Shown piece after piece: positions 1,636-5,482 of a stretch of 49,527 bases of DNA. Origin of the DNA: Komagataeibacter melomenusus. GTDB lineage: Bacteria; Pseudomonadota; Alphaproteobacteria; Acetobacterales; Acetobacteraceae. A program made the translations under genes and the position numbers. A model generated the notes under the pieces. It had not been told where the DNA came from. It ran no database searches and saw only the letters and a list, made by a program, of their open reading frames with translations. The stretch covers positions 1-49,527 of the forward strand of contig NZ_JABJWC010000023.1 in the NCBI RefSeq assembly GCF_013155395.1, read 5' to 3'. Within the stretch, counting starts at the first letter, position 1. Each line of letters opens with the position of its first letter.

Positions 1636-2135
1636 GGGTTCTTTCTCGCTCCTGGCCAATCCTGCGCGGGCTTTCGCGCCTGCCTGCACAACGCAGGCGC
1701 GCGGGCAGGCGTTTATACAAACAATCGTGCCCTGTCGCGGCAGGGGTCATGTTTGCCCCCGCCACGCGGGCCAGCGTGGGGCAGGGGCATGGCGCAAATA
1801 AGGCGGCCCGGACGCAGGGCATGAAGCGGGATATTGTATTTGTGGCTGGTCTGTACTGTGTTTTTTGGGTTTGTTCATAAAAGCATAATAAAAATGTATC
1901 GAAAACATAACACATGCAGGCGGGTGCGGCGGCTAGAGGAAGGGGAAGTGATTAAGGAACGATGAATATGGCCTGCCGGTGCGTTGCGTCATCATGATGG
2001 GCCCGTGTGTCATGGGTCCGTACATCGATTGCCCGCGGCCCCGGTTTTCGGGCCGGTGGGGCAGGCTGCCCTGCGCTTTGTGAACGCTGGCGCAGGCATG
2101 GCGCCCGCCGCTTTGAAATGGTTGTGGAACATTGC
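1636..2135. other. Divergent intergenic region with AT-rich promoter-like core
   Basis: About 500 bases separate the divergent phosphohexomutase and c-di-GMP genes. A conspicuously AT-rich stretch at about 1830-1915 stands out from the GC-rich surroundings and is the likeliest place for promoters in both directions. An open frame runs through 2007-2135 into the c-di-GMP gene, but it looks like read-through upstream of the real start. I see no RNA gene or repeat here. Confidence 0.5.
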
Positions 2136-4271
2136 ATGATGAACGATATCGCCGCCCCGCCAGCCCCTTCGGCCTTCATGACCATGGGCGATATCGCCTG
2201 CAAGGGGCCGGTCATCGGGCCGGATGCGCTGGGTGAGCGGCTGTTCGAGCTGTTTCACAATGACCCCGCGCTGATGCTCGTGGCGGTGGTGGACGGGCAA
2301 GGCACGCCGGTGGGGCTGGTGGAGCGGCAGGCCTTCTTCCTCAAGGTATCGGGCCGGTTTGGCCATGCGCTGTTCAACCGCCGCCCCGTGGCGCTGCTGA
2401 TGGATGACCGCCCGGTCATGATCGATGCCGATATCCCCGCCGCCGAGTTCACGGCGCGCGCGCTCATGACCCAGCCCTCCGACCTCATGCGCGGCTATAT
2501 CGTGACAAAGGCGGGGCGCTATCACGGCACCGGCTCGGCGCTGGACCTGATCAACGCCTCGCATTCCCACGCCGTGGCCTCCGCCTCGGGGCTGAAGGCG
2601 GCGGCGGAAGACCTGCGGCGGGCCAATAAGCGCATATTGCGTGACAAGCTGTTCATCGACACCATTGTCGAGAACATTCCCTCCGCCCTGATCGTGCGCT
2701 CCCTGCGCGATGACCACCCCGTTCTGGTCAACCGCGCCGCCGAGGAGATGATGGGCTGCACCCGCGACCTGCTGCTTGAGCGCAGGGTGGATGACGTGTT
2801 CGATGCGGACGAGATCGGCCATCTGCTGCTCAATCGTGCGGCAGGGCGCGCGCAGGCCGCCGAGCAGGTGCTGTGCGACCACCATGGCACGGCGCGCGCC
2901 ATTGCCACCCGCCATGTCACCATTACCGATGAGCGTGGCGGCGCGCGGTGGGAGATGTGCGTGGCCGATGACGTGACCGAACAGCGCAGCGCCCAGCACC
3001 GCGTCGAGCAGCTTGCCCATTACGACCCGCTGACCGGGCTGGCCAACCGCGCCCTGTTCTCCGCCCGGCTCGAGGCCACCTGCACGCCCGGGCAGATGGC
3101 GACACTGCTGTGCATCGACCTTGATTACTTCAAGACCGTCAATGACGTGTACGGCCACGCGGCGGGCGATACGCTGCTGCGGCTGGTCTCCGCCCGCCTG
3201 CTGGCCTGCAGCCGCCCCGAAGACCTTGTGGCAAGGCTGGGCGGCGACGAGTTTGCCATCATCTGGCCCGATGTGCCCGACCCGGACGAACTGACCGGCC
3301 GCGCGCGCGAGATTGTCGAGACCGTCAGCAGACCCTACATCATTGACGGGCACCATATCGTCATAGGCGCCAGCATTGGTGCCGCGCTGTACCCGCAGGA
3401 TGGCGAGAATGCCGAAATGCTGCTGCAACATGCCGATATTGCGCTGTACCGCGCCAAGTCGCTCGGGCGCAACGGCTTCCAGTTCTTCGATGCCGACCTG
3501 CGCGATGAAATCCAGACCCGCGCGCGCCTGGGCAACGAACTGCGCGCGGCCATTGCGCATGATGCGCTGACCCTGCATTTCCAGCCGCTCTATTCCATGC
3601 CGGCCAACCGCATCAGCGCGTGCGAGGCGCTGGTGCGCTGGCACCACCCCGAGCGCGGCATGATCCCGCCCGACCAGTTCGTGGGCCTGGCGGAAGAAAA
3701 CGGCCTGATCCACGACCTTGGTGAATGGGTGCTGCGCGCCGCCTGCCGTGAGGCGGCGGGCTGGCCCGAGCAGGTGCGCATTGCGGTCAATGTCTCGCCC
3801 ATCCAGTTGCGCAACCCGCGCTTCCTCAGCATTGTGGAAGGGGCCTTGGCGTGTTCCGGCCTTGCCCCCGCGCGGCTCGAGATCGAGATTACCGAGAACA
3901 TTTTTGTGCAGAACAGCGCCACCAACCGCGACATCCTGCACCGGCTGGGCCAGATCGGGTGCAGCATCGTGCTGGATGATTTCGGCACCGGCTATTCCTC
4001 GCTGGGCTACCTGCGCTCGTTTCGCTTCCAGAAGATCAAGATCGACCGCTCCTTCGTGCAGGAACTGCCCGAGCGCGGGGCGGCAGGCATCATCCGCGCC
4101 ATCATCAGCCTGGCGCAGAGCATGGACATCCCCATCACGGCGGAAGGGGTGGAAACACAAGACCAGTGGGCCCATCTCAACGAACTGGGCTGCAACCAGG
4201 TGCAGGGCTTCCTGCTTGGCCGCCCGCAGCCATCGGAGATGATCCGCCAGAGCATCCTGACCCATGCCTGA
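2136..4271 (+). CDS. CBS-PAS-GGDEF-EAL cyclic-di-GMP synthase/phosphodiesterase
   Basis: Cytoplasmic bifunctional-type c-di-GMP enzyme of about 711 residues with no membrane segment. Order: an N-terminal CBS-pair-like region (about 10-150), a PAS-like sensor (about 170-290), GGDEF (about 300-460) and EAL (about 470-705). The diguanylate cyclase motif GGDEF is intact near residue 370, and an inhibitory-site RxxD (RPED) lies exactly five residues before it. The EAL half keeps EAL, VNVSPIQL, EITEN, DDFGTGYSS, AEGVET and QGFLLGRP, so hydrolysis also looks possible. In cellulose-producing acetic acid bacteria c-di-GMP activates cellulose synthase, but no bcs gene is in view. The start is uncertain: ATGs at 2118, 2136 and 2139 are possible, and the frame is open from 2007. 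Confidence 0.93.
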   Translation: MMNDIAAPPAPSAFMTMGDIACKGPVIGPDALGERLFELFHNDPALMLVAVVDGQGTPVGLVERQAFFLKVSGRFGHALFNRRPVALLMDDRPVMIDADIPAAEFTARALMTQPSDLMRGYIVTKAGRYHGTGSALDLINASHSHAVASASGLKAAAEDLRRANKRILRDKLFIDTIVENIPSALIVRSLRDDHPVLVNRAAEEMMGCTRDLLLERRVDDVFDADEIGHLLLNRAAGRAQAAEQVLCDHHGTARAIATRHVTITDERGGARWEMCVADDVTEQRSAQHRVEQLAHYDPLTGLANRALFSARLEATCTPGQMATLLCIDLDYFKTVNDVYGHAAGDTLLRLVSARLLACSRPEDLVARLGGDEFAIIWPDVPDPDELTGRAREIVETVSRPYIIDGHHIVIGASIGAALYPQDGENAEMLLQHADIALYRAKSLGRNGFQFFDADLRDEIQTRARLGNELRAAIAHDALTLHFQPLYSMPANRISACEALVRWHHPERGMIPPDQFVGLAEENGLIHDLGEWVLRAACREAAGWPEQVRIAVNVSPIQLRNPRFLSIVEGALACSGLAPARLEIEITENIFVQNSATNRDILHRLGQIGCSIVLDDFGTGYSSLGYLRSFRFQKIKIDRSFVQELPERGAAGIIRAIISLAQSMDIPITAEGVETQDQWAHLNELGCNQVQGFLLGRPQPSEMIRQSILTHA

Positions 4272-4380
4272 AGGCAGCGGCCGCGGGCAGGGGAGGCGTT
4301 GCTGGCGCAGATGTGAGCGGCGGTGCCCGTAGCGCCAGCCTGCATGGTCTTGCAACCGTAACGGAAAACACGTAAAGCTG

Positions 4381-4534
4381 CTGCCAGCATCAGGAGTTGG
4401 GGCGACGCCCAACGCCAACCTGCCGTTCCGGGCAAGGTGGCGCTCCCGCAAGGGAGGATGTGGCCAGGCCGGCAACCAAGCGGATCATGCCACGTAGCGC
4501 GTCATGCCCCTCGCAATTGAGGATGGACGTGGCA
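4381..4534 (+). promoter_or_regulatory. metA leader: SAM-I-clan-like riboswitch with translational expression platform
   Basis: Seen by hand folding. P1: 4381-4391 with 4457-4467 (10 pairs, two single bulges). P2: GTTGGG 4396-4401 with CCCAAC 4408-4413. P3: GCC-A-ACC-TGCC 4414-4424 with GGCA-A-GGT-GGC 4431-4441. P4: CTCCC 4443-4447 with GGGAG 4452-4456 on a GCAA tetraloop. This three-armed layout and the segments AAGGTGGC and AGGATG resemble the SAM-I/SAM-IV core. Downstream, TGCCACGT (4488-4495) is perfectly complementary to ACGTGGCA (4527-4534) just before the metA ATG, enclosing CCTC/GAGG (4509-4512/4519-4522), which hides the Shine-Dalgarno. The same 4489-4495 segment can instead pair with P1's 3' strand (4458-4464). 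Inferred logic: SAM stabilises P1, frees 4488-4495 and shuts translation off. The class assignment is tentative; the P2 arm has no obvious kink-turn. Confidence 0.7.
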
Positions 4535-5482
4535 ATGCCCATAAGAATACCCGATGACCTGCCTGCACGCGGCACGCTTGAAGCCGAGGGCGTGATGGTG
4601 ATGGGCGAGACCGACGCCATACGGCAGGACATCCGCCCGCTGCGCATCGGCCTGCTCAACCTCATGCCCAACAAGATCCGCACCGAGACCCAGATCGCCC
4701 GCCTCATCGGGGCCACGCCGCTGCAGGTGGAACTCACGCTGGTACGTATGAGCGGGCATGTGCCGCGTAATGCTTCAGCCGATCATATGACCTCCTTCTA
4801 CCGCGCGTGGGAGGATGTGCGCGGCGCGCGTTTCGATGGCTTCATCATCACCGGGGCCCCCGTCGAGCGCCTGCCCTTTGCCGAGGTGACATACTGGGAT
4901 GAACTGCGCCGTGTGTTCGACTGGACCCGGACCAACGTGCACCGATGTTTCAACATCTGCTGGGCCGCCCAGGCCGCGGTGCACCACTTTCATGGCATGC
5001 CCAAGCACGCGCTGGCCCGCAAGGCGTTCGGGGTGTATGACCACCGCATCCTGGCACCGGCCTCGCCCTACCTGCAGGGCTTTGCCGATGACCTGTCCAT
5101 TCCCGTCTCGCGCTGGACGGAGGTGCGGCGCGCCGACCTGCCGCGCCATGCCGGCATGACCGTTCTGGCCGAAAGCCCCGAGACCGGGCTGTGCCTGCTC
5201 GACGACCCGCGCCACCACGCGCTGCACATGTTCAACCACCTTGAATATGATTCCACCTCGCTGGCCGATGAATATTTCCGTGACCGCGCGCGTGGGCTCG
5301 ACATCGCGGTGCCGCACAACTACTTCCCGCATGATGACCCGGCCCTGCGCCCCATCAACCGCTGGCGCGCGCATGCGCACCTGCTGGCAGGCAACTGGAT
5401 CAACCAGATCTACCAGACCACGCCGTTCGATATCGCGCGCATCGGGCATGAAAGCCGCCATCCCGAACTGGTATGCGCCTGA
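4535..5482 (+). CDS. metA: Homoserine O-acyltransferase MetA (probably acetyl-CoA specific)
   Basis: First committed step of methionine synthesis: acylation of homoserine. 315 residues, normal length. Catalytic residues fall at the reference E. coli positions: Cys142 (in NICWAA), His235 and Glu237 (in FNHLEYD). Position 111 is Glu (TGAPVE), the residue associated with acetyl-CoA use in the family; succinyl-CoA enzymes have Gly there. The product is therefore likelier O-acetylhomoserine than O-succinylhomoserine. Start: ATG 4535 gives the usual MPIRIP N-terminus; an in-frame GTG at 4529 has better spacing from GAGG (4519-4522). The structured leader immediately upstream implies control by S-adenosylmethionine. 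Confidence 0.95.

What the first reader, a model, noticed from the sequence alone, without database searches (positions are those of the whole stretch)
4381..4537. metA leader folds as a SAM-I-clan-like riboswitch with an explicit on/off switch
The aptamer-like part has P1 (4381-4391/4457-4467), P2, P3 with a bulged A on each strand, and a GNRA-capped P4. This is the three-armed layout of SAM-I/SAM-IV RNAs, upstream of the first methionine-specific gene. The expression platform is unusually legible: 4488-4495 is perfectly complementary to 4527-4534 next to the ATG, with CCTC covering the GAGG Shine-Dalgarno, and the same segment can instead pair with P1's 3' strand. The P2 arm is short with no evident kink-turn, so it may be a variant subclass. 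SAM-II, the class usual in alphaproteobacteria, is not what I see.
Basis: partly seen in the sequence, partly recalled or inferred. Interest (0 to 1): 0.75.

Follow-up and report, generated by a model that had tools for sequence, protein, structure and literature searches.

The report
SAM riboswitch before metA gene
The leader of this bacterial methionine gene is a known type of RNA switch that senses S-adenosylmethionine, and comparison with relatives suggests it flips by an unexpected route: one arm of the sensor itself unfolds to free the start site of the gene.

Summary
The leader at 4382-4489 is a SAM-I/IV riboswitch: Rfam RF01725, 53.7 bits against a gathering score of 41.1. In the genus, switch and metA match in the same 10 of 19 genomes.

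The expression platform is partly as described. Pairing of P1's 3' strand with 4489-4493 is conserved and covaries. The "perfect" 4488-4495/4527-4534 stem is perfect only in this species; the recurrent sequestor is 4498-4503/4526-4531, with GAGG inside.

The new result is a second alternative helix: P2's 5' arm and loop (4399-4408) pair with 4499-4510, the 5' strand of the sequestor. This complementarity is lineage-specific in the discovery set, in two later sets and in a third that overlaps them, beyond composition controls. I propose that without SAM this helix opens the start site and that SAM holds P2 shut. Nothing was tested at the bench. My paper searches, seen as listings and passages, turned up no such pairing; the key structure paper is not held.

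The parts
4382..4489 (+). SAM-I/IV riboswitch aptamer (RF01725)
   Evidence: 53.7 bits, gathering 41.1, full model 1-99
4387..4391 (+). P1 5' strand GCATC (partner 4457-4461 GATGT)
   Evidence: Rfam alignment
4397..4412 (+). P2 hairpin, arms 4397-4401/4408-4412, loop 4402-4407; no internal loop
   Evidence: sequence; Rfam alignment
4399..4408 (+). P2 5' arm plus loop, GGGGCGACGC: proposed antisequestor strand, partner 4499-4503 and 4506-4510
   Evidence: minimum-energy fold; lineage-specific complementarity
4413..4442 (+). P3 with the SAM-pocket CAAC (4416-4419) and U4438
   Evidence: Rfam alignment; SAM-I contact list read against the SAM-I sequence for CAAC; U4438 by recall of SAM-I
4427..4430 (+). 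PK-2 5' strand UCCG in the P3 loop (partner CGGA 4481-4484)
   Evidence: sequence; UCCG/CGGA against UCCCG/CGGGA in relatives, read by eye, not counted
4443..4456 (+). P4 stem with GCAA loop
   Evidence: sequence
4457..4464 (+). P1 3' strand and following bases, GATGTGGC; 4460-4464 is the target of the P1-competing segment
4463..4473 (+). P5 hairpin (GCC/GGC plus one mismatch)
   Evidence: Rfam alignment
4481..4484 (+). PK-2 3' strand CGGA
   Evidence: by eye
4489..4493 (+). GCCAC, competes for the P1 3' strand (4460-4464)
   Evidence: covariation U:A / C:G in relatives
4498..4531 (+). recurrent sequestor hairpin CGCGUC 4498-4503 / GACGUG 4526-4531, with CCUC 4509-4512 on GAGG 4519-4522
   Evidence: longest stem of at least 6 bp in 18 of 20 metA leaders with an SD-like tetramer inside in all 20 (no chance control for this search)
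4499..4510 (+). switching strand GCGUC-AU-GCCCC shared by the P2 alternative helix and the sequestor
4535..5482 (+). metA, probably homoserine O-acetyltransferase
   Evidence: NF047918 MetA_acetyl 440.7 bits, cutoff 460.5; TIGR01001 384.2, cutoff 495; both below cutoff

Best explanation
A SAM-I/IV riboswitch that turns metA translation off when S-adenosylmethionine is plentiful. With SAM (inferred): P1-P5 and PK-2 form, P2 stays shut, strand 4498-4512 is free and folds back on 4519-4531, covering GAGG. Without SAM (inferred): the P2 5' arm and loop (4399-4408) pair with 4499-4510 and GCCAC 4489-4493 pairs with the P1 3' strand; this dismantles P1 and P2 and takes the 5' strand of the sequestor away, so that ribosomes can start. 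Shown here: family membership, lineage-specific complementarity of both alternative helices, predicted energies of the two states within 3 kcal/mol in 9 of 16 metA leaders, and lower predicted pairing of the SD in the second state in 14 of 16. Not shown: SAM binding, regulation, or direction of the switch.
For: Aptamer. Context: the same 10 of 19 genus genomes match metA and the switch; of the 80 closest metA homologues kept, 69 have a SAM-I/IV-like leader by pattern; of 16 of the 80 given to cmscan, 14 match RF01725, the other two being pattern-negative as well. P2-platform helix, energy of own pairing minus that of pairs crossed between genera or families: -2.57 kcal/mol for 62 loci in 23 groups, against -0.18 (sd 0.36, 100 shuffles) and -0.20 to +0.37 for reversed or displaced platforms. 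Later sets: 27 loci of 19 families -2.73, P 0.001; 14 loci of 9 families -4.03, P 0.001, shuffled -0.27, sd 0.74; 69 metA leaders of 30 genus-like groups, partly the same records, -1.66, P 0.002. All 103 loci with one definition: -3.08; other aptamer segments -0.27 to -0.75. 50 of 103 loci pass a per-locus shuffle test at 0.05, the window among them (0.027); 49 of these 50 use 3 or more P2-arm bases and 49 have that strand also paired downstream in the fold. P1-competing segment: 29 U:A, 14 C:G, 5 U:G, 0 C:A in 48 of 62 loci. SD pairing is lower in the P2-open state in 14 of 16 metA leaders.
Against: No experiment. The P2-open state is lower in predicted energy than the P1+P2 state in only 5 of 16 metA leaders, equal in 1, and up to 10.6 kcal/mol higher (L004, L006). 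SD pairing does not fall in L006 and L042. 53 of 103 loci fail the per-locus test; the window gave 0.027, 0.063 and 0.005 under three definitions. The threonine-aldolase-type subset shows no significant signal (-1.22, shuffled sd 0.73). In the complementary subset the reversed-platform control reaches -0.79, and L3 and the first P4 segment give -0.59 and -0.75 with P 0.025 and 0.007, so part of the effect is background. 14 of 62 loci lack the GCCNC segment and L138 has C:A there. GAGG lies 12 bases from the ATG, further than usual.
Confidence: 0.68

Rival explanations
1. One reading: 4488-4495 alone toggles between the P1 3' strand (on) and 4527-4534 by the ATG (off).
For: Both pairings exist in the window; the P1-competing pairing covaries; forcing P1 in the model gives the 8-bp stem in the window species.
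Against: The 4527-4534 pairing is 8/8 only in this species among 20 metA leaders. Forcing the P1-competing helix instead of P1 leaves SD pairing unchanged to two decimals in 12 of 16 leaders, raises it in 2 (window 0.80 to 1.00, L005) and lowers it in 2 (L003 0.97 to 0.93, L049 0.71 to 0.55).
Confidence: 0.12
2. P2 loop and platform form a loop pseudoknot in the SAM-bound state with P2 intact, as AdoCbl riboswitches do with their C-rich loop.
For: The loop bases 4402-4407 carry much of the variation; an aptamer loop pairing with the platform has a precedent in AdoCbl riboswitches (passage in PMC2258182).
Against: 49 of 50 supported helices run 3 or more bases into the P2 5' arm, and the arm changes with the platform, e.g. 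GAGC/GCUC in L107 and L110 and GGAC/GUCC in L083; these bases cannot pair with both at once.
Confidence: 0.12
3. Aptamer real, but regulation acts mainly through PK-2, and the platform pairings are secondary or only affect folding order.
For: PK-2 can form here (by eye) and, by recall of the abstract of the SAM-I/IV structure paper, a pseudoknot is part of the regulatory switch of the crystallised RNA.
Against: The PK-2 3' strand CGGA (4481-4484) is separated from GAGG by 34 bases and does not cover it in this leader; two further pairings recur downstream.
Confidence: 0.1

Closest known systems
SAM-I/IV riboswitch (RF01725; structure 4L81)
   Same: Score above gathering, undivided P2, P4 present, P5, PK-2 complementarity, conserved pocket bases, methionine gene downstream.
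   Different: Downstream platform of about 45 bases with two alternative helices beyond the family model, which ends at 4489.
SAM-I riboswitch (RF00162)
   Same: Bases equal to SAM-I A6-C8, G11-A12 and C44-C47 all present; P1 3' strand competed for by the platform.
   Different: P2 not divided, no kink-turn; P5 and PK-2 complementarity present. No RF00162 match is listed (one lower same-clan match was left out by the tool).
SAM-IV riboswitch (RF00634, accession recalled)
   Same: P5 and PK-2.
   Different: SAM-IV has P2a/P2b and PK-1 and lacks P4 (passages of PMC6890682); here P2 is one helix and P4 exists.
SAM-II (SAM_alpha) riboswitch
   Same: Used before metA, metX and metY in other alphaproteobacteria (passages of PMC4239095).
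   Different: Different fold (recalled); no match here.
AdoCbl riboswitch loop-platform pseudoknot
   Same: An aptamer loop pairs with sequence outside the core (passage of PMC2258182).
   Different: There it forms on ligand binding; here the helix invades the arm and is proposed for the ligand-free state.

Membership tests
SAM-I/IV (RF01725) | Covariance-model score above the curated gathering score | tested here: met
   53.7 against 41.1 bits
SAM-I/IV (RF01725) | P2 without internal loop, not divided into P2a and P2b | tested here: met
   4397-4401/4408-4412; definition from passages of PMC2864571 and PMC6890682
SAM-I/IV (RF01725) | P4 and P5 present | tested here: met
   P4 4443-4456 in the sequence, P5 in the Rfam alignment with one mismatch
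SAM-I/IV (RF01725) | PK-2 between the P3 loop and the 3' tail | tested here: met
   4427-4430/4481-4484 complementary; strands change together in relatives, read by eye, no count made
SAM-I/IV (RF01725) | PK-1 absent | not tested
   no search for a PK-1 pairing was made
SAM-I/IV (RF01725) | SAM-pocket bases | tested here: met
   A4389 U4390 C4391, G4394 A4395, C4416-C4419 equal SAM-I 6-8, 11-12, 44-47 (list, sequence); 57-59 and 87 not comparable from those passages
SAM-I/IV (RF01725) | Binds SAM | not testable with these tools
   needs in-line probing or calorimetry
SAM-I (RF00162) | P2 with internal loop (kink-turn) | tested here: not met
   P2 is a 5-bp stem with a 6-base loop
SAM-IV | P2a/P2b and no P4 | tested here: not met
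   P4 4443-4456 present, P2 undivided
SAM-II | Rfam match | tested here: not met
   no match at gathering level in the window

The most novel reading that the evidence does not exclude
SAM-I/IV riboswitches of Proteobacteria generally switch by strand exchange in an inner aptamer arm: without SAM the P2 5' arm and loop pair with the 5' strand of the SD-sequestor or terminator, and SAM prevents this by locking P2. The lack of PK-1, which in SAM-I and SAM-IV ties up the P2 loop, would be what frees that loop for this task.
Probability: 0.6. Interest if true: 0.6.

Novelty: new variant of a known kind. Interest (0 to 1): 0.5.

Why it matters
The aptamer is known, but in what I could read the wiring of its class to gene expression is thinly described. 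A covarying helix that opens P2 gives a specific, testable mechanism for the class, suggests what the P2 loop does, and departs from the usual P1-centred view of riboswitch switching. It also shows that of the 80 closest metA homologues, 69 carry a SAM-I/IV-like leader, although the held survey of methionine regulation in Proteobacteria names SAM-II for metA in alphaproteobacteria (passages).

Tried and rejected
Simple fold of the leader: z only -1.81, not used as proof. A script that placed a fixed 10-base P2 register mis-registered many hairpins, dropped 30 of 89 loci and ended in an error; its mean own score 11.5 against 9.2 crossed points the same way but was not used. The first gene survey used 15 minus-strand hits in the wrong orientation and was redone. 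One search located two phylum loci (L103, L108) at a wrong CCAAC; redone by coordinates. Searches cut the P2 region short wherever its 3' arm reads CCCAAC, which spoiled arm counts and segment controls; one search repeats them with the core found correctly. The superseded values were: 42 of 103 supported, 36 of 42 with 3 or more arm bases, 41 of 42 paired downstream, 31 of 42 with an SD-like tetramer; own minus crossed -1.74, -2.45, -4.14 for the three sets and -2.97 for all; segment controls -0.57 to -0.87 and, for a P2 segment that overlapped the loop, -2.22.

Rows: one search gave 57 places and five more, in all 62 loci, one of them (L002) from another family; L054 and L062 were second copies and were dropped. 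Of 39 places, 3 were held already, 27 were fetched as loci and used, 9 were not (one of these, in G590, came in). Of 19 places, 14 were new. One search used P4 segments of 95 of 103 loci. The sets sample overlapping groups; the 69 leaders include records of the earlier sets. A pattern scan for promoters and terminators in 4200-4700 found none.

Papers: listings only (empty); passages only of PMC2864571, PMC4239095, PMC6890682, PMC5393176, PMC10907184, PMC11477058, PMC2258182. None of what I saw describes the P2-platform helix. The SAM-I/IV structure paper (PMC4020084) and the SAM-IV paper (PMC2327355) are not held; what I say of the former beyond its citation is recalled from its abstract. Supplements could not be read, so the 2010 family description there is unread.

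Full report
What is there. The window holds one Rfam match at gathering level, RF01725 SAM-I-IV at 4382-4489, 53.7 bits against 41.1; a permissive scan of 4300-4600 adds a weak sRNA match at E 0.73, with one lower same-clan match left out by the tool. It ends 45 bases before the ATG (4535) of metA, whose product fits the MetA_acetyl model best (440.7 bits, cutoff 460.5). It is the only match in the genome. The closest named metA relatives listed are Komagataeibacter.

Anatomy. P1 4387-4391/4457-4461; P2 4397-4401/4408-4412 with loop 4402-4407; P3 4413-4442; P4 4443-4447/4452-4456 with GCAA; P5 4463-4465/4471-4473; PK-2 4427-4430/4481-4484 (by eye). The bases that correspond to SAM-I positions 6-8, 11-12 and 44-47, listed as lying near the ligand and read against the SAM-I sequence, are all identical. 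The undivided P2 together with P4, P5 and PK-2 is what separates SAM-I/IV from SAM-I and SAM-IV (passages).

Distribution. In the genus, 10 of 19 genomes match metA and the same ten match the riboswitch. RF01725 is in 54 of 299 family genomes, 35 of 385 class genomes and 19 of 398 phylum genomes; these samples overlap, and the stricter filters used for large searches lose weak matches. Of the 80 closest metA homologues, 69 have a SAM-I/IV-like leader by pattern; of 16 of the 80 given to cmscan, 14 match, and the two that do not (L134, L189) are pattern-negative too. In the 62 family-set loci the next gene is metA in 16 and a threonine-aldolase-like frame shared by 19 (one of them, L063, matches PF01212).

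Expression platform, first pairing. A GCCNC segment follows PK-2 at a near-fixed distance in 48 of 62 loci; its fourth base tracks the P1 3' strand: 29 U:A, 14 C:G, 5 U:G, none C:A. By genus this is 12, 3 and 2, and two riboswitches of one genome (L032, L074) differ in step.

Second pairing, sequestor. The longest stem between the strand after GCCAC and the bases before the ATG has 6 or more pairs in 18 of 20 (5 in L006, 4 in L049), mostly GCGUC with GACGC or close variants, and encloses an SD-like tetramer in all 20. This was a search for the best stem and had no chance control. In the window it is 4498-4503/4526-4531.

Third pairing, new. In the minimum-energy fold of the window leader, 4399-4408 (P2 5' arm and loop) pairs with 4499-4503 and 4506-4510. 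In relatives the same pairing recurs with changes on both sides: AACGC/GCGUU in L005, GGGAC/GUCCC in L029 and L042, GGGCCGACGC/GCGUCGGCCC in L088 beside GGGCUGACGC/GCGUCAGCCC in L077, AUGAUUUGACG/CGUCAAAUCAU in L113 and GAGC/GCUC in L107 and L110. In L025 the strand runs into the 5' side of a terminator-like hairpin followed by a run of T.

Test. For each locus the duplex energy of its P2 segment with its own platform was compared with platforms of other genera or families, one locus per group. Own minus crossed: -2.57 kcal/mol (62 loci, 23 groups); controls: bases 30-60 and 60-90 further on +0.30 and -0.14, upstream +0.37, reversed -0.20, 100 shuffles mean -0.18, sd 0.36, lowest -1.24. The hypothesis was formed on that set. 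In sets fetched later: 27 loci of 19 families -2.73, P 0.001, shuffles -0.21, sd 0.46, displaced controls -0.25, -0.50 and -0.58 with P 0.33, 0.14 and 0.11; 14 loci of 9 families -4.03, P 0.001, shuffles -0.27, sd 0.74, lowest of 40 -1.96; 69 metA leaders of 30 genus-like groups -1.66, P 0.002, shuffles -0.08, sd 0.27, reversed -0.36 with P 0.13 (this set shares records with the others). With one definition for all 103 loci the value is -3.08, P 0.001, and by set -1.96, -2.70 and -4.03.

Against it: 50 of 103 loci pass a per-locus shuffle test at 0.05 (26 of 62, 18 of 27, 6 of 14) and 53 do not; the window gives 0.027, 0.063 and 0.005 under the definitions. The threonine-aldolase-like subset is not significant (-1.22, shuffled sd 0.73), and in the rest (-2.83) the reversed control reaches -0.79. 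Other aptamer segments give -0.28 (P2 3' arm, P 0.07), -0.59 (P3 loop region, P 0.025), -0.75 and -0.27 (P4, P 0.007 and 0.18), so a small part is background.

Exchange rather than loop contact. Of the 50 supported helices, 49 take in at least 3 bases of the P2 5' arm, 49 have the platform strand also paired downstream in the fold, and in 39 an SD-like tetramer is paired to it. The P2 helix and the platform helix exclude each other, and so do the platform helix and the sequestor.

Energies. With P1+P2 forced or the two alternative helices forced, the P2-open state lies between 2.9 kcal/mol below and 10.6 above the other; it is lower in 5 of 16 metA leaders, equal in 1, and within 3 in 9. SD pairing falls in the P2-open state in 14 of 16 (window 0.80 to 0.41) and not in L006 and L042. 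PK-2 and SAM are not in the model. Forcing only the P1-competing helix leaves SD pairing unchanged in 12 of 16, higher in 2, lower in 2.

Conclusion. A SAM-I/IV riboswitch, known class, sits before metA and most likely represses its translation when SAM is abundant. The antisequestor appears to be the P2 5' arm and loop together with the P1 competition. Direction and ligand response are inferred from the family and from gene context.

Noticed in passing
L014, L046, L048, L053, L055-L061, L063, L065-L070, L072: In 19 of 62 family-set loci the SAM-I/IV riboswitch precedes a threonine-aldolase-like frame. For L063 it matches PF01212 (216.8 bits) but stays far below NCBIfam cutoffs for threonine aldolase; a SAM switch on this enzyme suggests an unassigned role in sulphur or methionine metabolism.
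   Followed up: partly
L032, L044 and, by shared frames, L035, L039, L040, L041, L043, L045, L051, L064: The riboswitch precedes a small open frame (97 residues from ATG in L044) without Pfam or NCBIfam match; part of the frame similarity is the aptamer itself.
   Followed up: partly
L025 and L073 (two copies in genome G118): Two SAM-I/IV riboswitches of one genome are followed by a terminator-like hairpin with a T run.
   Followed up: partly
window 4382-5482: Nine of 19 genomes of the genus show no match to metA or to the riboswitch, so the pair was probably gained or lost as a unit.
   Followed up: no
window 2103-4271: The upstream neighbour matches GGDEF/EAL c-di-GMP phosphodiesterase models, below their cutoffs except the GGDEF domain (best 25 of 31 families shown).
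   Followed up: no
L103, L108 (phylum set): Aptamers of one other family with P2 beginning GAUGGCUUUGUCGCCAC and GCAACC in place of CCAACC; platform helix unclear (p about 0.2).
   Followed up: no
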